A stretch of DNA of 64,000 nt from Mesorhizobium australicum (lineage in GTDB: Bacteria; Pseudomonadota; Alphaproteobacteria; Rhizobiales; Rhizobiaceae): positions 2,170,001 through 2,234,000 of the forward strand of contig NZ_FXBL01000004.1 of assembly GCF_900177325.1 (NCBI RefSeq). The letters run 5' to 3'. Positions 32,351-57,582 of the stretch are shown piece by piece. How positions within the stretch are numbered: position 1 is the first letter of the stretch; each line of letters opens with the position of its first letter. The notes under the pieces are model-generated. The model was not told where the DNA came from. It worked only from the letters and a program-made list of their open reading frames with translations, and did not search any database. The position numbers were made by a program, and so were the translations under genes.

Positions 32351-32532
32351 TGTAACGCGCAAGATCACATGGCTTTTGCCGGGAACATCCGGGAATAGGC
32401 GGGAAGGACCGAAAAAAGGCGGAAACGCAAGGGGTTGCGAGGTCTCGGCCGGCAAATGGCCGGATCACAGGCGCGCAAGTTCAAATGGCACTGGAAGGCG
32501 CTTTGAACGAGAGGCGCGCAAGATCAAATGGC
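32351..32532 (+). repeat. Left attachment end with three transposase-binding sites (L1, L2, L3)
   Basis: The terminus TGTA is followed by L1 ACGCGCAAGATCACATGGC (32355-32373). L2 is GCGCGCAAGTTCAAATGGC (32471-32489) and L3 is GCGCGCAAGATCAAATGGC (32514-32532). All three are in the same orientation, spaced 116 and 43 bp start to start. Phage Mu has three same-direction MuA sites at its left end with a similar long-then-short spacing. L3 contains the stop codon of the repressor gene. Confidence 0.85.
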
Positions 32533-33195
32533 GCCGCCCGCCCACCTCACGCGACCTTCGATGATCAGTTCGGGCTGCTCGGCGAGCGGAACCTCTTCGG
32601 TGTCGTAGGCCGGGTTGTCGCTCTTCAGCAGCAGGATGCCGTCGCGCCGCATCTGGACGCGCTTGACCTTCAGCAGGCCGGCGAAGACCAGGACATAGAT
32701 GCCGTCCTGCCGGACGTCGCGGATCGCGGTGTCGACGAGCATCATGTCGCCGTGCGCGATCGTCGGATACATCGAATCGCCGTCGCAGATCAGAATGCGG
32801 GCAAAGCGGGCAGAAACGCCAAGCTGCCGCAGCCATTCCTCCCGGAAAGCCACGATGTCGGCGGGACCGAGATAATCTTCGGCAAATCCCGGGGACAGCG
32901 CTCCGGCGCCGGCCGCGGCACGGACGTCGAGCCGCGGGATCGGCACGAAGCCGTCACTGTATCCAACCACCAGTTGCGCCGGACCCGGTCGCATCGGCCC
33001 TTCGCCGGTCGCGAGCCAATCAAGGGTGACGTGCGTCAGCCGCGCAATCTCGACGAGCTTCTCAAGGCCGGGCATCGACCCGTCGAGGTATTTGCGAACC
33101 ATATTGTCCGAAATTGCACTCCGCCTCGAAAACGCATGAGGCGATTCGCCATCTAGGGCGATTCGAAAGCGGTCAGCGAACCCGATCGGTCCCAT
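32524..33195 (-). CDS. Phage repressor, XRE HTH plus S24 (LexA-like) peptidase
   Basis: 223-residue prophage repressor. The N-terminal HTH is FSRRSAISDNMVRKYLDGSMPGLEKLVEIARLTHV. The C-terminal LexA/CI-type autoprotease has Ser in CDGDSMYPTI (about 140) and Lys in LLKVKRVQ (about 178). A candidate Ala-Gly self-cleavage site is in RAAAGAGAL (about 92-100). This predicts RecA-stimulated induction, unlike the temperature/Clp-controlled Mu c repressor. It is transcribed leftward to the phage end, as Mu c is, and faces the Ner gene across an operator region. Confidence 0.9.
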   Translation of the reverse strand: MGPIGFADRFRIALDGESPHAFSRRSAISDNMVRKYLDGSMPGLEKLVEIARLTHVTLDWLATGEGPMRPGPAQLVVGYSDGFVPIPRLDVRAAAGAGALSPGFAEDYLGPADIVAFREEWLRQLGVSARFARILICDGDSMYPTIAHGDMMLVDTAIRDVRQDGIYVLVFAGLLKVKRVQMRRDGILLLKSDNPAYDTEEVPLAEQPELIIEGRVRWAGGAI

Positions 33196-33743: not shown

Positions 33744-33793
33744 GAGCCTCGTCAACGCCGCCCGCCGCCGTCGACTTGCCCGAGTTCAGCGCC

Positions 33794-34624
33794 ATGACCG
33801 CCACGCCCGTTCCAGTTTCTGCCATCGACATTCCTGCCGGCCGCCGGCGTCTTGACCCAGTTTGGGTCAAGACTCTCGCCGAGCTGATGCTGACACCCGC
33901 GGATTGCGCGCCGATCGAGCTGATCAGTCGCGGCGATCGTTTCCAGCTCGTCTTCGGCAGACATCGTCTCGCGGCTGCAGAGCGCAACGGCTGGACCGAG
34001 ATCCCCGCGATCGTGAAGACGTCAGCCGACTTTGCCAACGATGCGGCGATCATCCGTCGTGAGATCGTCGAGAACTTTGCCCGCCGCGATCTTTCGGCCC
34101 TCGATCGTGCCGTGGACATCGCTCGGTGGCGCGAGGCGTTCGAGGCAGTCCAAGGGGTGATCCGCAAAGGGCGTCCGGCGAAATTGTCGCAACTTGCGAC
34201 AATTTCCGACGACGACATCGACCGGTTCGCCGGCAGTTTCTCGGAAGCCGCGCGCCGCGCCCTTGGCATCAACCGAGACGCAATCTCACGCGCCATGCGC
34301 ATCGCAGCGATCGCGGCGGATCTGCGAGACGCGATCGCACTACACCCGATCGCCGAAAACCAATCCGAACTCCTATTGCTCGCCGCCCAAGCCCCGGAAA
34401 GGCAGCGACAGATCGTCGAACTGCTGAACCGAACGGCGCTCCCGGCCGCGAACGTGACCGATGCGATCGCCGTTCTGGACCGACTGCCGCCGCGCCTTCG
34501 CGAAGCAGCCTGGCAGGCTATCTCATCCAAGTTTTCCCGGCTCAAGGAAGCCGAGCAGGCCCGGTTCTTCGAGCTTCACGAAGCGGCCATCCGTCGCTGG
34601 CTTGCAGGGAGGAGCGGATCATGA
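33794..34624 (+). CDS. ParB/Srx-like protein, early gene
   Basis: 276 residues. The N-terminal ParB-like domain has VSAIDIPAGRRRLDPVWVKTLAELM, PIELISRGDRFQLVFGRHRLAAAERNGWTEIPAIV (the GxHRLxAA box, about residues 54-64) and ENFARRDLSALDRAVDIARWREAF. The C-terminal half is helical, with GINRDAISRAMRIAAI as a possible HTH. In transposable phages such genes occur between Ner and the transposase; their job is not established. The next gene begins 4 nt before its stop. Confidence 0.82.
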   Translation: MTATPVPVSAIDIPAGRRRLDPVWVKTLAELMLTPADCAPIELISRGDRFQLVFGRHRLAAAERNGWTEIPAIVKTSADFANDAAIIRREIVENFARRDLSALDRAVDIARWREAFEAVQGVIRKGRPAKLSQLATISDDDIDRFAGSFSEAARRALGINRDAISRAMRIAAIAADLRDAIALHPIAENQSELLLLAAQAPERQRQIVELLNRTALPAANVTDAIAVLDRLPPRLREAAWQAISSKFSRLKEAEQARFFELHEAAIRRWLAGRSGS

Positions 34625-36926: not shown

Positions 36927-39191
36927 ATGAAGGAATGGCTGACAGCTCGCGAGATTGCGGCCGAGGCGTTGCCGGACTTGCCGGCGACTGAGAGCGCGAT
37001 GCTGCGGCTGATCTCCCGCGAATGCTGGAGCGAGAACCCGGCCTTTGCTCGGTCGCGTGCGGGTCGCGGCGGCGGCATGGAATACAACGTCGCGCTGCTG
37101 CCGACGCTGGCTCAGGTGGCCTACCGGCAGAAGCATATCCAGTTCGAGCCGCAGCCGGCCGCGCCTGCCGAGGCGGCAACCGATGACGGATTGACCGACC
37201 GGGCCAAGCTGGAGCGCGATGCGCGGCTGGCGATCGTGGCGGCGTATCAGCGTTTCACGAAGACGCTGCGCCTCGGCCACGCCACCCACCTGCAGGTCTT
37301 CACCGACAAATACAACCAAGGCTCGATCGAGGTGCCCGAGTGGGTGCGCACGTCCGTCCCGGCGCTCTCGAAGCGGTCGCTGGTGCGCTGGATCGCCGCG
37401 AAGCGCGACGGCCGCAGTGCGAAGCTCGGCGTCGACCGCTCACTGGCGCGCAAGGGCACCGGCGTGCTGGATCGCGCCAACGACGGCAAGGTCCGCGCGT
37501 TCATGCTGGCGCTGATCGCGCACCAGCCGCACCTCTCGGGCGAAGCCGTCCGGACGCAATGCCGGGCCGAGTTCGGCGACACGATCAAAGTCATTTCAAA
37601 GGGCGTTGAAACGGTCGTTGCGATGCCGCCGGTGCGGACCTTCCAGCACGCGCTGAAGGCACTGAAGGCCGACAACAAGGTCGTGCTGACGAAGCTCACC
37701 AATCCCGATCTCTACCGCTCGACCATGGCGCCTTCGGGCATCGGCATGCTGCGGCATATCACCGAGCCGAACCAGCTCTGGCAGATCGACGCGTCGCCCG
37801 TTGATGCGCTCTGTACGGATGGCCGGCACTCAATCTATGCCTGCATCGACATCGCGACGCGCCGCACGATCCTCAGCATGTCGAAGACGCCCCGCGCCTC
37901 GGCCGTCGCCCTGCTCATCCGCAAGGCGATCCTCGCCTGGGGTGCGCCGGAGGTCATCCAGACAGACAACGGTTCGGACTTCGTGGCGAAGGATACCCAG
38001 CGGCTGTTCGCCTCGCTCGGCATCGATCCTGATGTCTGCGACGCCTACACGCCCGAGCAGAAGGGCCATGTCGAGCGTGTCATCAAGACGTTCCAGCACA
38101 TGGTCGGGCCGCTCTTGCCCGGCTATGTCGGCCATTCGGTCGCGGACCGAAAGGTAATCGAAGGGCGCAAGAGCTTCGCCAAGCGGCTGGGCGAGACCGA
38201 GAACGAGACTTTCAGCGTCGGCCTCAACGGCGTCGAGCTGCAGGGCAAGGTCGATGAGTGGATCGACCTCGTTTACCAGCACCGGCCGCACGCGGGCCTG
38301 AAGGAACGCACCCCCTTCAACGTCGCGCTGGAATCTACCCGTCCGCTCAGAACTGTCGATGTCCGCGCTCTCGATCTGCTGCTGATGCCCGTCGCCGGCG
38401 GTGGCGGCGAGCGCATCGTCACCAAGTTCGGCATTCGCATCGACGGCTATCACTACATGACGCCGACGATCCTTCCGGGGACACCGGTTCTGGTGCGGCA
38501 GGATCCGCTCGATCTCGGTCGCGCCCTGGCATTTGCCCAGGATGGCGGAGCCTTCCTTGGCGAGGCGATCTGCCCCGAGCTGCGCGGCATCCATCCCGAG
38601 ACCTACGTGCGCGCGGCCAAGGAAATCCACCGTGAACTGGTCGATGATGCGACGCGGCAGGTGAAGGCTGACATGAAGCGGATCGCCAAGGGTCCGGCGC
38701 TGATCGACCGCGCTCTGGACGTCGCGCGCCGCGATGCGCCCAACGTGATCCCGCTGCCGAAGCGCGAGGAGGCGCACACGACGCCGCAAATCTCGGCCGC
38801 GATCGCCGCGATGGGCGAGGCGGCGCGGCCGACGCGGGAACCGACACCGGCAGAGGCGGCCGCACAGCGCCGGCTGATCGCCGAAATGGAGGCCGAGGAC
38901 GAGCGCCGTGTGAGCGAGAGCTTCGCGGCCAAATACGAAGGCCGGATGGCCGAGATCGAGGCGGCGCGGACCGCGCATCTGCCGAGGGACGAGAAGGTCG
39001 TCGCGCTGCCGGAGACGCCGAAGGAACGCTACCGGCGCTACGTCGAAATCCGCCGCGCAGTCGATGCGGGCCTTCCGGTCGTCGGCGCCGGTGCCTTCGA
39101 TGCGGTGTGGGCCGGACGCTACGAGGCGAGCACGGAGTTCCGCGTCCAGTCGGCGATCCATGCCGAATACGGTGAAGCGTATCTGAGTTGA
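36927..39191 (+). CDS. Mu-type transposase (MuA-like, DDE)
   Basis: 754-residue transposase that would bind the end repeats and carry out strand transfer. The N-terminal domain (EWLTAREIAAEALPDLPATE...REC) resembles MuA DNA-binding domains. The catalytic triad is D288 (LWQIDASP), D347 (QTDNGSDF) and E383 (KGHVERVIK). The 35 residues between the last two give a DD(35)E spacing like retroviral integrases; the gap in MuA is longer. The C-terminal third is Arg/Glu/Ala-rich and would hold the MuB-contacting region. Followed by the MuB-type ATPase. Confidence 0.95.
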   Translation: MKEWLTAREIAAEALPDLPATESAMLRLISRECWSENPAFARSRAGRGGGMEYNVALLPTLAQVAYRQKHIQFEPQPAAPAEAATDDGLTDRAKLERDARLAIVAAYQRFTKTLRLGHATHLQVFTDKYNQGSIEVPEWVRTSVPALSKRSLVRWIAAKRDGRSAKLGVDRSLARKGTGVLDRANDGKVRAFMLALIAHQPHLSGEAVRTQCRAEFGDTIKVISKGVETVVAMPPVRTFQHALKALKADNKVVLTKLTNPDLYRSTMAPSGIGMLRHITEPNQLWQIDASPVDALCTDGRHSIYACIDIATRRTILSMSKTPRASAVALLIRKAILAWGAPEVIQTDNGSDFVAKDTQRLFASLGIDPDVCDAYTPEQKGHVERVIKTFQHMVGPLLPGYVGHSVADRKVIEGRKSFAKRLGETENETFSVGLNGVELQGKVDEWIDLVYQHRPHAGLKERTPFNVALESTRPLRTVDVRALDLLLMPVAGGGGERIVTKFGIRIDGYHYMTPTILPGTPVLVRQDPLDLGRALAFAQDGGAFLGEAICPELRGIHPETYVRAAKEIHRELVDDATRQVKADMKRIAKGPALIDRALDVARRDAPNVIPLPKREEAHTTPQISAAIAAMGEAARPTREPTPAEAAAQRRLIAEMEAEDERRVSESFAAKYEGRMAEIEAARTAHLPRDEKVVALPETPKERYRRYVEIRRAVDAGLPVVGAGAFDAVWAGRYEASTEFRVQSAIHAEYGEAYLS

Positions 39192-44847: not shown

Positions 44848-45074
44848 CGAAGCCTCCTGTCACCGTCACCGACCACGCCATCCTGCGCTGGCTGGAGCGC
44901 GAGCACGACATCGATGTCGAGGCCATCCGTGAGCACCTGGCCGGCCTGGCCGCGAACGGGGCGCGGCTGGGTGCCGCCGGCGTGAAGATCGGCAAGGTCA
45001 AGCTCGTCTTGCGCGGCTCTGTCGTCATCACGGCCTACAAAGGTATATGGCCGAGTCGGGGGGGCGGCGAGTGA
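44844..45074 (+). CDS. Phage hypothetical protein, 76 aa
   Basis: Starts at GTG 44844 (GTGA overlap). The sequence VTVTDHAILRWLEREHDIDV, then EAIREHLAGLAANGARLGAAGVKIGKVKLVLRGSVVITAYKG, looks like a RelE/ParE-toxin-like or BrnT-like small beta-alpha fold, especially DHAxxRxxER and the final strands, but key residues are not diagnostic. It overlaps the start of the methyltransferase gene. Treat as unknown. Confidence 0.5.
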   Translation: MTKPPVTVTDHAILRWLEREHDIDVEAIREHLAGLAANGARLGAAGVKIGKVKLVLRGSVVITAYKGIWPSRGGGE

Positions 45075-46234
45075 ATGCGCCCTCGGCCCTCTCGTTGAGC
45101 GAGCCCGGCACGTTGCCGGCCTTCGTGCGACGGGCGGCCGAGATGCTGGCGGCCGCGTCCTCGGCGGCGGAGGTGCTCGACGCGCGCGACCATGCGGCAA
45201 TGGCCTATGACGCGGCCAAGCGGGCCGCCAGGCTGGCAACCGCCAAAGGAGCGCATGACGAAGTCGTCGCGGCCGTCTACCGCGCGCAGGCCGACGCGCT
45301 GGAGATCGAGAGTCTTGCGAAGCGCCGTCTTGCCGACGAATACGACGCGGCACTGGAGCGCGGCGACGTAGCCGGGCACGGCGGGCGGCGAGGCAACCAG
45401 TTTGCCAAGGTTCGCGACGGCAACCTTGCCACGGCGAGCGATGTCGGGCTCAGTCGGCCGGAGATCTTCGAGGCGCGCCGGATCCGCAATGCGGTCGAGC
45501 GCGAGCCCGGCATTATACGACGCGTGCTGGAGGACATCCTCGACGCCGGCGACGAGCCGACCAAGGCGCGGCTTCGTAAGGAACTCGGTGGACCGATCAG
45601 GAAGATCCGCGCCGCACAGCAGGCGCTGAAGAAACAGCGCCGCGCAGTCCGCGAGATCGAACTGGCAGGCAAGATCGTGGCACTGCCCGACCGGCGCTAC
45701 GGGACGATCTACGCGGATCCGGAATGGCGCTTCGAGCCCTACAGCCGAGAGACCGGCATGGACCGGGCCGCCGACAACCACTACCCGACGAGCCCGACAG
45801 ACGAGATCGCAGCGCGCGACGTCGCGTCGATCGCGGCCGACGATTGCGCGTTGTTCCTCTGGGCGACAGCGCCGATGCTGCCCGATGCCCTCTACGTCAT
45901 GGATATGTGGGGCTTTGCCTATGTGACGCATTGCGTCTGGATCAAGGTGCGTGCCGGAGAGGCACGCGGCCCCGGCTACTGGTTCACCGGGGAACATGAA
46001 TTGCTCCTCGTCGGCACGAGGGGCAACGTGCCCGCTCCGGCTCCCGGGACGCAGTTTCCGTCATTCCTGATCGCGCCGGTGACGGAGCACTCGGCGAAGC
46101 CAGAGGAATTCCTGGAACGGATCGAGGCGTATTTCCCGAACCTGCCGAAGATCGAGCTCAACCGCCGCGGCCCAGCGCGGCGCGGCTGGGATGCCTGGGG
46201 CGCCGAGGCCGCGCCGCCGGAGCCGGAGGCGTGA
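45047..46234 (+). CDS. MT-A70 family adenine-N6 methyltransferase with N-terminal helical domain
   Basis: 395 residues. The C-terminal MT-A70 domain (from about 215) has the catalytic motif as DPEWRFE instead of the classical DPPW (about residue 223), FLWATAPMLPDALYVMDMWGFAY, WIKVRAGEARGPGYWFTGEHELLLVGTRG (about 305-330) and SAKPEEFLERIEAYFPNLPKIEL. The first 200 residues are helical and coiled. It probably methylates phage DNA at adenines, protecting it from host restriction; mRNA targets cannot be excluded. A GTG start at 45071 is an alternative. Confidence 0.85.
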   Translation: MAESGGRRVNAPSALSLSEPGTLPAFVRRAAEMLAAASSAAEVLDARDHAAMAYDAAKRAARLATAKGAHDEVVAAVYRAQADALEIESLAKRRLADEYDAALERGDVAGHGGRRGNQFAKVRDGNLATASDVGLSRPEIFEARRIRNAVEREPGIIRRVLEDILDAGDEPTKARLRKELGGPIRKIRAAQQALKKQRRAVREIELAGKIVALPDRRYGTIYADPEWRFEPYSRETGMDRAADNHYPTSPTDEIAARDVASIAADDCALFLWATAPMLPDALYVMDMWGFAYVTHCVWIKVRAGEARGPGYWFTGEHELLLVGTRGNVPAPAPGTQFPSFLIAPVTEHSAKPEEFLERIEAYFPNLPKIELNRRGPARRGWDAWGAEAAPPEPEA

Positions 46235-52278: not shown

Positions 52279-53918
52279 TGGCCAGCCGCAAATCCCCGAT
52301 CCTCGACCAGTTCGGCCGGCCGATCGAGCACGAGCTTTTGACGCAGGAGATCGCGGCGCCGACGATCGGTGGCGTGCGGACGCCTCTGACCGGCTACCCG
52401 GCCGACGGGCTGAACCCTGTCCGACTCGCCACCATCCTGCGCGAGGCTGACGCCGGCGACCCGGTCCGCTACATGGAGCTGGCGCAGACGGTCGAGGAGC
52501 GCGACCTGCACTATGTCGGCGTGCTCGGCACCCGCAAGCGCTCGGTCAGCCAGCTCGATATCACGGTGGAACCAGCTTCGGATTCGGCTGCGCACCAGAA
52601 GCATGCCGACGCCGTCTCCGAATGGCTGAAGCGCGACGAGCTGCAGGACGAGATGTTCGATCTCGGCGACGCGGTCGGCAAGGGCTATGCGTTCTCGGAG
52701 ATCGTCTGGGATACGTCAGAGGGGCAGTGGCAGCCGGCGCGGCTGGAATGGCGCGACCAGCGCTGGTTTCGCTTCGACCGGCACGACCTGACGACACCAC
52801 TGCTCGTGGGCGAGCACGGCCAGGAGCAGCCACTGCCGGCATTCAAGTTCATCCGCCCGGTGATCAAGGCGAAGTCCGGCCTGCCTCTACGCTCGGGCCT
52901 GGCGCGCATCGTCGCGTGGGCATGGATGTTCAAGGCCTTCACCAACCGCGACTGGGCGATCTTCACCCAGACCTATGGCCAGCCGGTTCGCATCGGCAAA
53001 TATGGGCCAGGAGCCACCCAGGCGGACCGCGACACGCTGTTCCGCGCCGTGGCCAACATCGCCGGCGACTGCGCCGCGATCATCCCTGATGGAATGACGA
53101 TCGACTTCATCGAGTCGAAATCGGTGGGCGCGTCGTCCGCACTCTACCTTGAGCGCACCGACCATCTCGATCAGCAGGTATCGAAGGCCGTGCTCGGCCA
53201 GACCGCCACGACCGATTCGGTCACCGGCGGACTGGGCTCCGGTAAGGAACACCGACAGGTCCAGGAGGACATCGAACGGGCCGACGCCAAGTCGCAATCG
53301 GCCGCGATCAACCGCGACCTGATCCGGGCATGGATCCAACTCGAGTATGACGATCATGGCGGCAAGTTCCCGCGCCTGAAGATCGGTCGTTCCGAAGAGG
53401 CGGATGTCGGCGTGACCGTCGACTCCGTCTCGAAGCTGGTGCCGCTGGGCCTGAAGGTCGGCCAACGGCAGATGCGCGAGGTGATCGGGCTCGGTGCGCC
53501 GGCCGAGGACGACGAATTGCTGGCGTCCGCGCAGGCGAAGAGCGACTTGGGCGAGGACGCGCCCGTCCGCGGGACGAAGGGCGAGCCGGCGAAGGCGAAG
53601 GACACGCCCTCTGGTAAGGCGGACGAGACTGAGGAAGCGCTGCACCAGGAGGGGCATCATGCGGGGCCGCTGCCCGACGAAATCATCGGCGATGCGGCGA
53701 TCGTTCTGGGCGGCCCGTCCGTCGGCGACCTGGTGGCGAAGATGCGCGGCATCGTCGCCTCGGCCGGCAGCCTGGAGGAAGCGCAAGCGGCATTGGAGCG
53801 GGCGGCGGCGGCGCAGCAGACACCGGCCAACCTGACGGCCGCGATGCGGCAGGCGATGCTGCTCGCCTGGCTCTCCGGCGAGGCGGCGGAGGCGGACCGG
53901 GCTGGCGATGACGACTGA
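52278..53918 (+). CDS. Portal protein, DUF935 (Mu gp29-like)
   Basis: 546 residues. The DUF935 hallmarks are LTGYPADGLNPVRLATILREADAGDPVRYMELAQTVEERDLHYVGVLGTRKRSV near the start, GKGYAFSEIVWDTSEGQWQPARLEWRDQRWFRFD, and TNRDWAIFTQTYGQPVRIGKYGPGATQADRDTLFRAVANIAGD. The region beyond about residue 410 is charged and probably variable between phages. Forms the dodecameric gate of the head. Overlaps the MuF gene by 11 nt. Confidence 0.93.
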   Translation: MASRKSPILDQFGRPIEHELLTQEIAAPTIGGVRTPLTGYPADGLNPVRLATILREADAGDPVRYMELAQTVEERDLHYVGVLGTRKRSVSQLDITVEPASDSAAHQKHADAVSEWLKRDELQDEMFDLGDAVGKGYAFSEIVWDTSEGQWQPARLEWRDQRWFRFDRHDLTTPLLVGEHGQEQPLPAFKFIRPVIKAKSGLPLRSGLARIVAWAWMFKAFTNRDWAIFTQTYGQPVRIGKYGPGATQADRDTLFRAVANIAGDCAAIIPDGMTIDFIESKSVGASSALYLERTDHLDQQVSKAVLGQTATTDSVTGGLGSGKEHRQVQEDIERADAKSQSAAINRDLIRAWIQLEYDDHGGKFPRLKIGRSEEADVGVTVDSVSKLVPLGLKVGQRQMREVIGLGAPAEDDELLASAQAKSDLGEDAPVRGTKGEPAKAKDTPSGKADETEEALHQEGHHAGPLPDEIIGDAAIVLGGPSVGDLVAKMRGIVASAGSLEEAQAALERAAAAQQTPANLTAAMRQAMLLAWLSGEAAEADRAGDDD

Positions 53919-54594
53919 GGTTCGCTTCGAGGAGGCGATCGCCTTCCTGCGCCGGCGGCTCGAACTGCCGGCCGATCGCTGGCTCGAGGTGGTGCGCCAG
54001 ATCGATGCCGCTGCCAGCGACCGCTCCGCCGGCATGACAGACTCGCTGGTGACGGACATTCTCGCCGAAGTTCTGAAGGCGATCGAGGACGGCTCGACCT
54101 TCGACGGCTTCCTGGACGGCTGGATCGAGGCGACGCGTCGGCACGGCTGGACGGCGGGCGACGACTTCGAGAGTGCCTACCGGGCGCGGCTCGCCTTCCG
54201 CCTCATGACGAGCCAGGCCTATGCTGCCGGTCGCTGGCAGCAGATCCAGCGGCTGAAACGGGTGCGGCCCTATCTCCGCTACGTCCATGTCGACCCGGAG
54301 CTGACTCAACCCGGTAGCCGGCACGAGCACGCCGCCTGGCACGGCATCATCCTGCCGGTCGACCACGAATGGTGGCTGACGCACTATCCGCCCAACGGCT
54401 GGAACTGCCGCTGCTACGTCCAGTCGCTGTCCGAGCGCGATCTCGGCCGCTATGGCTGGCGCGTGTCGGAGGAGGCTCCGCCCGACATCACCGTCATCCA
54501 GTTCGTCCGCGGCGTCCCGGTGGAAACGCCGGCTGGGATCGATCCCGGTTTCGCCTTCAATGTCGGTGTGGCAGGGCTGCGCCTGGCAGCCTGA
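53908..54594 (+). CDS. Head morphogenesis protein, MuF-like (Mu gp30)
   Basis: 228 residues. The SPP1-gp7/MuF domain is shown by EHAAWHGIILPVDHEWWLTHYPPNGWNCRCYVQSLSERDL (about 137-175), with the invariant NGWxCRC. It binds the portal and is packaged in the head in small number. It is shorter than Mu gp30, which carries an additional C-terminal part. The next capsid gene is 1.9 kb away because an antisense cassette (54595-56280) is inserted directly after its stop. Confidence 0.9.
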   Translation: MTTEVRFEEAIAFLRRRLELPADRWLEVVRQIDAAASDRSAGMTDSLVTDILAEVLKAIEDGSTFDGFLDGWIEATRRHGWTAGDDFESAYRARLAFRLMTSQAYAAGRWQQIQRLKRVRPYLRYVHVDPELTQPGSRHEHAAWHGIILPVDHEWWLTHYPPNGWNCRCYVQSLSERDLGRYGWRVSEEAPPDITVIQFVRGVPVETPAGIDPGFAFNVGVAGLRLAA

Positions 54595-54777
54595 TCAGAG
54601 GTGGTAGTAGTAGATGCCAAAGGCGATCGGCCCGATCAGCAGGGCAGCGATCGCGGCGACCCGGATGGCGATCGCCAGGCGGATGCGAAAACGCCGCCAG
54701 GGCGTCTGGTCGGCCATAAACCGAATCCATTCGTCCCGCTCGGCATTTTCGTAGGCGATGTCCGTCTTCCATCCCAT
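54595..54777 (-). CDS. Small single-pass membrane protein in antisense cassette
   Basis: 60 residues (MGWKTDIAYENAERDEWIRF, then a basic stretch RRFRIRLAIAIRV and a membrane helix AAIAALLIGPIAFGIYYYHL). Positive charges before the helix predict an N-in orientation with a tiny outer tail. A start at 54859-54861 (88 aa) is possible; ribosome-binding evidence does not decide. It follows the PIN gene on the same strand and abuts the convergent MuF stop with no gap. Not recognised. Confidence 0.55.
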   Translation of the reverse strand: MGWKTDIAYENAERDEWIRFMADQTPWRRFRIRLAIAIRVAAIAALLIGPIAFGIYYYHL

Positions 54778-54897
54778 ATTGCGATCTAGCAGGATCGATT
54801 GTGGCGCGGATTGGGCGTCGGAGGCTCCGGTAAGCCACCGTGAGGTGCGGAGGCCATTCACCGCCGTTCAAAACCGGTTTAACGTGCCCGATGCCGC

Positions 54898-56280
54898 CTA
54901 CTCGTCGTCTCCCGGGTCATCATCCAGGGAGAACAGCCTATCATACACCGACACGATGGCTTCGTCGGTAAGATCGGCATCATACTCCTCAATCGCAAAG
55001 CTGATTAATTTGCGAACCGGCTCGCGCAAATTGGTTGCGTGAACGTCGAACGCTATTGTTCCCTGTGAGAGGCCGAGCGTGGGGAGCAGGAACATCGAGC
55101 CCTCAAAATCCGAGCCCGACCTGAAATCCTGGCATTTCAATGTAGCTTCATCCGTTGGCGGATGCGGCCGGTCCAGCCAGTAAAAGGCGGTGGGATCACG
55201 TTCTTCCTCGTGCCAATCGGCCATATCCAATCGGCGGGTCAGATGGCTGAGATCAATCTGGGACCAGCCTCCGCGGGGCGCCTTTGGCGGCTTTGGCAGC
55301 GTGCTCAGGAGCGACTGAATGACCTGCTCGGGCTCATCGACCAGCATCGCGCCGACCGAGCTGATCCTTACGATGAGGTTCGAAGCCGGCTGTCCGCTTT
55401 CGTTGCGAAGTACGTAGTCGATGGAAACGAACCGCGCTGCCTTATTCAGCAGTTCGGGAATGTGGTCGACAAAGGAAGTCACACGCTTCACGAAGGCATC
55501 GTACCTAGAACGATAATCGTCGATGGCCGATTGATCAGGGCGGTTCCAGGCTAGAGCACTGGTCAAAGACCCCATTGGTGCAAAACTCGTTCGCGGATGT
55601 AGGCCCAGGAATCGCCTCACAAACGCATCGGAGTCCCCGGCATCAAGCGGCTGGACGCGCGGTACGCGGAACACGATGGGCTCGTCCGGCAGCGCCAGGG
55701 TCACAGTTGGATGGCGCTCCGCGAGTGCCTTTCGAAGTCTATCGATCTCGATCTGTTGTGCCGTCTTGTCCTCCGGCAAGAGCCAGTCCTCCGCCGGCTC
55801 CAAGACCACACCGCCATAGTATCTCGCATTTATGCGGGGCGTGCGGTCATGCGTGAAGACGATTGAACCGGAATCGCTCAGCGCGGTGGCGACGAGCAGA
55901 TCGTCCGTCTTGTGAGGGGTCAGATCGGGAAAGGCAGACCAGTCGACCTGTCGCGAGCGTTCGACAACCAGGACGATCTCTGGATTACTCTGACGCAAAA
56001 CAAGGCTCATGGGATTGTTGCGCGTGGCTTCGTCGATCAGCTTCAGAGCTGTTCTGGATCGATTCCGAAGACGGTCCTGTTGTCCGATCTTCATGGTCTC
56101 AAGCTCTTTTACGATCGCAGGTATGACTATGAGCCTGACCGAAGACACCCCCGGAAAGGCGCTTCGCCATGGTATGTCTTTGAGGTCACGAAGCTGCACG
56201 AATGCGTTTGCGTCCAGGTAGAGTCTGGCTATCTGGATTGGCGGCTCAATCGCGCCTAGATCTGCTTGTGTCGTGTCCAT
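54898..56280 (-). CDS. PIN-domain protein with C-terminal beta-rich domain (PIN/DUF4935-like)
   Basis: 460 residues when started at ATG 56278-56280. The PIN nuclease domain has its four acidic positions: D23 in LYLDANAFVQL, E59 in VIPAIVKELE, D126/D127 in HKTDDLLVATAL, and D145 in IVFTHDRTPRI. Residues 250-460 contain SIDYVLRNESGQPASNLIVRISSV and SQGTIAFDVHATNLREPVRKLI, suggestive of an Ig-like beta sandwich. It would be a metal-dependent RNase. Its GC (about 55% in sampled lines) is below that of flanking phage genes (about 66%), and it is on the strand opposite all structural genes: a moron. Confidence 0.8.
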   Translation of the reverse strand: MDTTQADLGAIEPPIQIARLYLDANAFVQLRDLKDIPWRSAFPGVSSVRLIVIPAIVKELETMKIGQQDRLRNRSRTALKLIDEATRNNPMSLVLRQSNPEIVLVVERSRQVDWSAFPDLTPHKTDDLLVATALSDSGSIVFTHDRTPRINARYYGGVVLEPAEDWLLPEDKTAQQIEIDRLRKALAERHPTVTLALPDEPIVFRVPRVQPLDAGDSDAFVRRFLGLHPRTSFAPMGSLTSALAWNRPDQSAIDDYRSRYDAFVKRVTSFVDHIPELLNKAARFVSIDYVLRNESGQPASNLIVRISSVGAMLVDEPEQVIQSLLSTLPKPPKAPRGGWSQIDLSHLTRRLDMADWHEEERDPTAFYWLDRPHPPTDEATLKCQDFRSGSDFEGSMFLLPTLGLSQGTIAFDVHATNLREPVRKLISFAIEEYDADLTDEAIVSVYDRLFSLDDDPGDDE

Positions 56281-56481
56281 GGTCGAGCGTCCCTTTGGAA
56301 GGGATATCGCGAGTTCGCGTCGCAGACCAGCCCGCCTTGACCCTGTGCACCGTCTCGTGACAGCCTGATGCTGGCGCAGGTTGCGCCGGCCTGCGCCGGC
56401 GTCCGATAGCCAAGGCGACCGACGCTGGATGGCCGAATTCGGCCACCCGACTGACATGCCCGCCGCTGGCTAGATGCGGCA
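56281..56481. promoter_or_regulatory. Divergent region between the PIN gene and the protease gene
   Basis: 201 bp that should carry the promoter of the antisense cassette. A perfect 16-bp palindrome TGGCCGAATTCGGCCA lies at 56430-56445, about 150 bp upstream of the PIN start, and a GC-rich repeat GCGCCGGCCTGCGCCGGCG sits between. No standard -10/-35 pair was convincing. Confidence 0.4.
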
Positions 56482-57582
56482 ATGCTTCGCCCCGCCACTT
56501 TCACCTCGCTTCACTCGGCCGCCGACACGGGCGACCTGGCGCTGTGCGCCGCGTTCCCGCTGCCCGCCTTCGAGGACGACAAGGTCCCGGAGTGGATCAA
56601 CCTGCTTCCCGCCGGTGCGATCATCACGACCGTGGACGGGCGCGGCCCCTACAAGGTTCCCAGCGCCGCCGAGGTGGTTCGGGCCAGTCTGCAGCAGGCG
56701 GCCGGACCGATGGTCCTCGACGAGAACCACGCGACGGATATCGCCGCAGCCAGGGGGGAGTCGGCGCCGGCGCGGGGCTGGATCGTCGCGCTCGACGCTC
56801 GCCCGGACGGCATCTGGGGCAAAGTCGACTGGACCAAGAGCGGCCTCGAACTGATGGCTGACAAGGCCTACCGCTACATCTCCCCGGTCATCACCCACCT
56901 GAAGGACGGAACCGTCCTCGAGATCCGGCGCGCCTCGCTGGTCAACAAGCCCAATCTGCGCGGCCTCGCCGCGCTTCACCAGGAGAACACCATGGACCTT
57001 CTCGCCAAGCTGCTCGCCGCGCTGGGCCTTCCCGCGACCACGACGGAAGAGGCGGTCATCGCCGCCGTCACCACGATGCATGCCCAGCAGACCGCGGCGT
57101 CGACCGCGCTGCAGGCTGCGCTCGATCCGATCGCCACTGCGGTCGGGCTTCAGGCCGGTGCCGACGCCACCGCCGTACTCGCCGGCGTCCAGCAGGTGAC
57201 GGCGAAGGGCAACGACAATGTCGTGGTCGCCCTGCAGGCGGAGATCGCGACGCTTGCCAGCCAGGTGAAGACGCTGACCGAGACCGGGTCGAAGGAGCGG
57301 GCGACCGTCTATGTCGACGGCGAGATCAAGCGCGGGCGCGCCGGGCTGAAGCCGCTGCGCGACCATTACATCGCCATGCACATGGCGGACCCGGCCCGTG
57401 TCGAGAAGGAGATCGGCGCGATGATCGTGCTCGGCCCGTCCGGCGCTCGTGTCGATCCGCCGGCCCCCGTCAACGGCGAGATCTCGCTCAATGCGGAGCA
57501 ACGCGCCACGGCGAAGATGCTGGGCATCGACGAGAAGGCCTATGCCGAAACCCTGAAGGCCGAGCGCGAGGCCGCGCTCTAA
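56482..57582 (+). CDS. Phage prohead protease with scaffold domain (Mu gpI/gpZ-like)
   Basis: 366 residues. The N-terminal 160 are the protease ([92 protein letters not shown]), as in Mu gp32. The C-terminal half is helical scaffold. An in-frame ATG at 56992 preceded by AGGAG could start a separate scaffold protein ([20 protein letters not shown]), the arrangement known for Mu I and Z. It cleaves scaffold during head maturation. Confidence 0.88.

What the first reader, a model, noticed from the sequence alone, without database searches (positions are those of the whole stretch)
54595..56280. Antisense PIN nuclease plus membrane protein cassette inside the phage head operon
Between MuF and the protease, where all other genes read rightward, two genes read leftward: a 460-aa protein with a complete PIN acidic quartet (D23, E59, D126/D127, D145) plus a large beta-rich C-terminal half, then a 60-aa single-pass membrane protein 120 nt downstream (37 nt if its longer start is used). 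Three hand-counted 60-base lines in the cassette have 52-57% GC, against about 67% in a portal-gene line. The leftward promoter would stay active in the lysogen when late genes are silent. A toxic RNase expressed from a prophage and paired with a membrane protein suits abortive infection or superinfection exclusion. In Mu this site is occupied by gpG, which here lies elsewhere, so it may be a variable cargo site.
Basis: partly seen in the sequence, partly recalled or inferred. Interest (0 to 1): 0.78.

Follow-up and report, generated by a model that had tools for sequence, protein, structure and literature searches.

The report
Phage defence-gene slot carrying PIN nuclease
A dormant Mu-like virus in this bacterium carries, between two of its capsid genes, a backwards-reading gene for a probable RNA-cutting enzyme, in a slot where related viruses carry other anti-virus systems, so it is probably a weapon against competing viruses.

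Summary
A leftward 460-aa gene (54898-56280) and a leftward 60-aa membrane-protein gene lie between MuF and protease of a Mu-like prophage. The 460-aa protein has a predicted PIN fold, an invariant acidic quartet and an Ig-like beta-sandwich C-terminal half. The MuF-protease junction is a hotspot: in 10 distinct phages with MuF at least about 50% identical it spans 355-7948 nt, while portal-MuF stays at 44-160 nt. Five of the 10 carry genes matching PADLOC models (PD-Lambda-5, PifA-like, PD-Lambda-4, Cas13a with a CRISPR array, PDC-S20), two carry PIN, one an unknown pair, two no cargo. Outside phages, in 6 of 12 tested PIN loci a hand-picked neighbour matches a defence model (Lamassu, IetAS, bSEFIR, SIR2-type and others). 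Best explanation: a single-gene, RNase-based anti-phage defence carried as prophage cargo, probably auto-inhibited. The membrane protein is a resident of the junction (5 close phages have it without PIN, one has PIN without it), so the proposed pairing is not supported. A conserved element before the protease (9 of 10 phages) may restart head-gene transcription, but a sigma-70 scan did not recognise it. Function, trigger and expression in the lysogen are untested.

The parts
53908..54594 (+). MuF-like minor head protein (228 aa), left border of the cargo slot
   Evidence: PF04233 E 3.1e-13; phrog_220 E 6e-60
54595..54777 (-). 60-aa single-pass membrane protein (ATG start), resident gene of the junction
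   Evidence: homologues at the same junction, antisense, in L031, L032, L034, L035, L036 (shorter copy) and, weaker (E 1e-6 to 6e-6), L044 and L052; alignment A4 of five copies; peak hydropathy 2.33 over 19 residues
54866..54883 (.). conserved motif GTTCAAAACCnSTTTAAY of unknown role
   Evidence: once per locus in 7 of 10 phages; the pattern was drawn from these loci; only match in the window, 0.05 expected
54898..56280 (-). 460-aa PIN-domain protein with Ig-like beta-sandwich C-terminal half; candidate defence nuclease
56337..56363 (+). conserved element TTGAC-N15/16-TGACAG upstream of the protease; possible promoter that restarts head-gene transcription
   Evidence: only match in the window; once per locus, 207-227 nt before the protease domain, in 9 of 10 phages; not recognised by the sigma-70 scan
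56482..57582 (+). Mu-like protease I, right border of the cargo slot
   Evidence: PF10123 E 9.6e-49; phrog_328 E 3e-69

Best explanation
The PIN gene is a single-gene anti-phage defence carried as cargo in a hotspot between the MuF and protease genes of a Mu-like prophage. Shown by sequence: the gene is a low-GC, antisense, variable insert at a junction where related phages carry genes of known defence families, and several of its relatives elsewhere sit beside defence genes. Inferred: it is transcribed leftwards, independently of the repressed late genes; its N-terminal PIN domain is a metal-dependent endoribonuclease kept inactive by the C-terminal beta-sandwich and helices; infection by a competing phage relieves the inhibition, RNA is cut, and the infection aborts. 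I put a defence function at about 0.75 and this particular auto-inhibited RNase mechanism at about 0.5.
For: Junction variability: MuF-protease 355-7948 nt, portal-MuF 44-160 nt, protease-gpT 501-966 nt, between profile-match edges in 10 phages chosen by MuF similarity, not by cargo. Genes in that interval matching PADLOC models: PD-Lambda-5_B 2.4e-110 (its A protein weaker, 2.5e-20), PifA 3.6e-91, PD-Lambda-4_A 5.8e-304, Cas13a 3e-251 with repeats every 65-66 nt, PDC-S20 5.9e-85; 9 of 9 head-region genes of the window give no PADLOC match at 1e-3. A second, diverged phage has PIN (34% identity) at the same place in the same antisense orientation, with flanking proteins 58-74% identical. Outside phages, 0 of 17 homologue loci hold any of six head genes in the 3.4-21 kb held, and 10 of 20 hand-picked neighbour genes, in 6 of 12 loci, match defence models at 2e-31 or better. 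The catalytic quartet is invariant in 30 aligned proteins. No antitoxin-like gene is seen beside it (ORFs of 50 aa or more). Solo PIN defence has a precedent: DS-3 in PMC13092281, whose authors suggest auto-inhibition (passages seen).
Against: No experiment. PADLOC has no match for this protein. No sigma-70 promoter was found for it. PADLOC matches of KAP and AAA domains are generic, and single-gene matches are not whole systems. Neighbours outside phages were chosen by eye; 10 of 20 genes and 6 of 12 loci gave no match, and 5 of 17 loci were not tested. Four of the 17 loci are only 3.4-4.1 kb long. Two of the 10 phages carry no cargo, so the cargo is dispensable. The terL-portal gap also varies (27-548 nt), though far less. 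The same paper's DS-5 is a PIN defence that needs a second protein, so a missed partner is possible.
Confidence: 0.72

Rival explanations
1. The PIN and membrane proteins form one two-gene unit, a toxin with a membrane anchor, antitoxin or exclusion partner.
For: Same strand, 120 nt apart. Two-protein PIN defence exists (DS-5, PMC13092281, passage).
Against: Of 7 close phages with either gene, only the window has both; 5 have the membrane gene without PIN and L037 has PIN without it. tblastn found no copy of the membrane gene in the 17 non-phage PIN loci.
Confidence: 0.08
2. PIN is a phage regulator or processing RNase that cuts or silences the antisense head-gene mRNA, as part of lysis-lysogeny control.
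For: It lies antisense within the head region, and the same placement recurs in a second phage.
Against: It is absent from 8 of 10 related phages, and its family exists outside phages.
Confidence: 0.07
3. PIN is a neutral passenger or a stabilising (addiction) toxin with no effect on phages.
For: Low GC suggests acquisition from outside.
Against: Catalytic residues stay invariant among proteins about 30% identical; genes of defence families recur at the same junction; no antitoxin gene is seen.
Confidence: 0.1
4. PIN is a phage structural or assembly gene.
For: It lies among the head genes.
Against: Opposite strand, low GC, missing in 8 of 10 relatives, homologues in loci without head genes.
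Confidence: 0.02

Closest known systems
P2/P4 prophage defence hotspots (PMC9122126, PMC9519451; passages)
   Same: Small variable slot between two conserved phage genes, filled with diverse anti-phage systems.
   Different: Here the phage is a Mu-like transposable phage, the slot lies between head genes, and a conserved element before the protease is kept across cargo types. Protection is untested.
DS-3, single-protein PIN ribonuclease defence (PMC13092281, passages)
   Same: One protein, PIN ribonuclease domain, no antitoxin.
   Different: DS-3 has its PIN domain split between N- and C-terminus; here it is one N-terminal block followed by a beta-sandwich. Sequence kinship was not tested (DS-3 sequence not at hand).
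VapBC toxin-antitoxin (recalled)
   Same: PIN endoribonuclease fold with an acidic quartet.
   Different: 460 aa instead of about 130, and no antitoxin gene seen beside it.
SMG6/Nmd4/Utp24-type PIN domains (structure)
   Different: Eukaryotic RNA-decay or ribosome-assembly factors, 14-21% identity. A C-terminal beta-sandwich of this kind in them is not known to me (recalled).

Membership tests
PIN domain superfamily (Pfam PIN_4) | PIN fold | tested here: met
PIN domain superfamily (Pfam PIN_4) | acidic active-site residues | tested here: met
   D23, E59, D126, D145 invariant in 30 aligned proteins
PIN domain superfamily (Pfam PIN_4) | Pfam score above the curated cut-off | tested here: inconclusive
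   window protein 18.4 bits against a cut-off of 21.9; 27 of 31 proteins in the profile search carry PF13638
VapBC toxin-antitoxin | small antitoxin gene adjacent to the PIN gene | tested here: not met
   neighbours are a 60-aa membrane protein that does not go with PIN elsewhere, and phage head genes; ORFs under 50 aa were not listed
Prophage defence hotspot | variable content between conserved phage genes | tested here: met
   10 phages
Prophage defence hotspot | known defence genes in the slot | tested here: met
   5 of 10 phages by PADLOC; 9 head-region genes of the window without a match as control
Prophage defence hotspot | cargo protects against phages | not testable with these tools
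   needs plating assays
Mu-like transposable phage | Mu-type transposase, GemA, gp27, MuF, protease I, gpT | tested here: met
   PF09299, PF06252, PF11985, PF04233, PF10123, PF10124
DS-3/DS-5 PIN defence | sequence homology to the tested proteins | not tested
   their sequences were not at hand

The most novel reading that the evidence does not exclude
Mu-like phages of this alphaproteobacterial group carry a dedicated defence port inside the head operon: MuF, a resident antisense membrane protein with a boundary motif, exchangeable defence cargo, then a promoter-like element that restarts head-gene expression. The cargo ranges up to a Cas13a CRISPR system, and the PIN/beta-sandwich protein is a new defence family found by its place in that port.
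Probability: 0.5. Interest if true: 0.75.

Novelty: new variant of a known kind. Interest (0 to 1): 0.62.

Why it matters
PMC9122126 describes prophage defence hotspots in P2-like phages and P4 satellites and names two more found by manual examination; PMC9519451 adds a second P2 slot (passages of both). A slot among the head genes of transposable phages, holding systems as large as Cas13a with its array, offers a place to search for new defence genes by position, and gives a direct, testable candidate: a one-gene PIN nuclease that the PADLOC, NCBIfam and PHROG libraries did not name here. It also bears on how a phage can carry large, oppositely oriented inserts among late genes without losing capsid gene expression.

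Tried and rejected
For the PIN protein: no match in GenBank phages, NCBIfam or PADLOC, and one weak PHROG match only (E 0.35). A single-sequence scan of genome contigs found nothing; the 30-row alignment found 13 loci there but none in viral contigs, where the five-row alignment had found two, this prophage itself and L007. No PDB sequence relative. Both large protein searches scored only about 8,000 candidates, so the family may be less rare than these lists suggest.

Vertical inheritance versus separate acquisition of the two phage PIN genes is unresolved: both fall in a 100/100-supported set of five with P0019, a Mesorhizobium protein (P0016) and L008, but the order inside is open and the window branch is long.

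Spacers of the L038 CRISPR array (5 read between 6 repeats) had no convincing target among the loci held. An order-level search (397 genomes) gave only MuF relatives of 46-48% besides the window, and three genus searches (16, 7 and 10 genomes) none new.

Gap sizes of more distant phages are not comparable, because MuF is longer in those looked at (e.g. RcapMu) and my MuF profile ends at the short form; the hotspot count is therefore limited to the 10 close phages. Dropped from that set: L027/L039 (one contig) and L040, because the held sequence ends just after MuF; L032/L140, L035/L141, L038/L142, L037/L007 and window/L033 are the same sequences and counted once. L064 and L146, more distant, were looked at because of their large gaps; L146 holds an OLD-like gene and L064 an OLD-like and a PDC-S06 gene. 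KS10 was uninformative: its record ends at MuF.

The viral fold library gave only partial matches.

Papers: of searches I saw the listed titles and abstract starts only (15-20 rows each of 84, 40, 194, 88, 307, 247 and 22 papers; 3 of 3); none listed names this junction as a hotspot. Subscription journals are mostly not held. Passages only were seen of PMC9519451, PMC11089165, PMC4378225, PMC13092281, PMC9122126 and PMC11080155.

Full report
What is there. The window (G000:C4:2170001-2234000) holds a Mu-like prophage: an S24-type repressor at 32524-33195, a Mu-type transposase at 36927-39191, an AAA ATPase with a weak TniB match, GemA, an N-acetylmuramidase, gp27, then portal, MuF, protease I and gpT. 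IMG/VR holds the same prophage as a 45-kb contig (L006/L033). Between MuF (ends 54594) and protease (starts 56482) two genes read leftwards: a 460-aa gene, 54898-56280, and a 60-aa gene, 54595-54777. The insert is 59.1% GC against 65.3% for the window.

The site. MuF relatives in IMG/VR and in 394 genomes of the family gave 10 distinct phages with MuF about 50% or more identical and both borders present. Their intervals: window PIN + membrane gene; L031 membrane gene only; L032 (=G300) an unknown 223/156-aa pair + membrane gene; L034 PD-Lambda-5-like + membrane gene; L035 (=G104) DUF1254, membrane gene, PifA-like KAP ATPase, a 461-aa gene without a match and DUF2806; L036 Ku, SRAP, membrane gene, PD-Lambda-4_A; L037 (=L007) PIN alone; L038 (=G281) a like pair, Cas13a and a CRISPR array; L143 (G346) empty; L144 (G131) a KAP ATPase (PDC-S20). 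Measured between profile-match edges, the interval runs from 355 to 7948 nt, while portal-MuF stays at 44-160 nt and protease-gpT at 501-966 nt; terL-portal is 27-31 nt in seven phages and 172, 514 and 548 nt in L144, L031 and L143. Nucleotide similarity between the window and L037 stops near the end of MuF and resumes in the protease. As a control, none of 9 head-region proteins of the window matched PADLOC at 1e-3 (a tenth protein, 45047-46234, did match methyltransferase models). The hosts are probably Rhizobiaceae: a protein of the 60-aa family named Mesorhizobium sp. DCY119 lies on a contig of nearly G104's length (inference).

The membrane protein. It is conserved (36-48% to the window copy among four relatives), antisense wherever found at this junction, and has weaker matches there in the more distant L044 and L052. 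Among close phages it occurs once alone and with four other cargo sets, and is missing beside the L037 PIN gene. It is a resident of the site, not the partner of PIN.

Borders. A motif GTTCAAAACCnSTTTAAY occurs once per locus in 7 of 10 phages, just to the right of the membrane gene where that is present; it stays in L038, which lacks the gene. TTGAC-N15/16-TGACAG occurs once per locus in 9 of 10, 207-227 nt before the protease domain (not in L143); among 46 other loci it was in 5, four of them duplicates of the set and one L159, from the window's genus. Both patterns were drawn from these loci. The second may be a promoter that restarts transcription of the head genes after the cargo; this is inference from conservation and position, and the sigma-70 scan found no promoter in 54500-56600 on either strand, this element included.

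Relatives outside phages. Seventeen homologue loci (3.4-21 kb held) have none of six head genes (with L007 as positive control). Of 20 neighbour genes that I picked by eye from 12 of them, 10 matched PADLOC at 2e-31 or better, in 6 loci: LmuA/LmuB (L010, L012, the latter with a MkoC-like gene), IetA/IetS (L008, in the subclade of the window protein), bSEFIR (L019), PDC-S65 with SIR2 (L017), PDC-M60C (L003); the other 10 genes, and loci L002, L009, L013, L016, L018 and L020, gave none. Loci L004, L005, L011, L014 and L015 were not tested that way.

Reading. The gene is most likely an anti-phage defence nuclease carried as cargo. The auto-inhibited RNase mechanism leans on the PIN fold, the absence of a visible antitoxin and the published DS-3 case, a one-protein PIN defence whose authors suggest auto-inhibition until infection (PMC13092281, passages); the same paper's DS-5 needs a second protein. 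Expression in the lysogen, substrate and trigger are unknown. The listings of eight literature searches (titles and abstract starts of the top rows) showed no description of this junction as a hotspot. An association of some E. coli defence systems with Mu-like phages is mentioned in PMC9519451 (passages), and accessory genes of Pseudomonas Mu-like phages are reported mainly in the left arm (PMC4378225, passage).

Noticed in passing
L038:12034-16170 (G281): A Cas13a gene (PADLOC E 3e-251) with a CRISPR array of 6 good repeats and a degenerate seventh sits among the head genes of a Mu-like prophage; the 5 spacers read matched nothing convincing among the loci held.
   Followed up: partly
L032:10659-11802 and L038:10681-11874: An unknown gene pair (223 and 156 aa in L032, 244 and 146 aa in L038, alike by eye; the second membrane-like by eye) in two phages with otherwise different cargo; no Pfam match for the L032 copies.
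   Followed up: no
54866-54883: Near-palindromic motif GTTCAAAACCnSTTTAAY, once per locus in 7 of 10 phages, retained in L038 where the membrane gene is absent; role unknown.
   Followed up: partly
L036:10788-12828: A Ku gene and an SRAP gene as phage cargo in the interval that also holds a PD-Lambda-4 gene.
   Followed up: no
45047-46234: A 395-aa gene matching DNA methyltransferase models, in the region before the head genes.
   Followed up: no
33776-34624: A weak ParB-N match (below Pfam's cut-off) next to the HTH_35 (Ner-like) gene at the left end of the Mu-like prophage.
   Followed up: no
53908-54594: MuF of the window is a short form (228 aa) compared with RcapMu (493 aa) and JBD25 (412 aa); whether the short form goes with the cargo slot was not tested.
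   Followed up: partly
56281-56457: The 5' extension of the PIN frame encodes a peptide like one in a frame upstream of the protease in another Mu-like prophage of the same genus (L159), so part of the right flank seems shared without PIN (by eye).
   Followed up: no
L002:364-1275: A PIN homologue in a same-family genome lies beside a 303-aa gene weakly like a proteasome subunit (E 1e-3, below cut-off) and near an ORF that looks TraA-like by eye.
   Followed up: no
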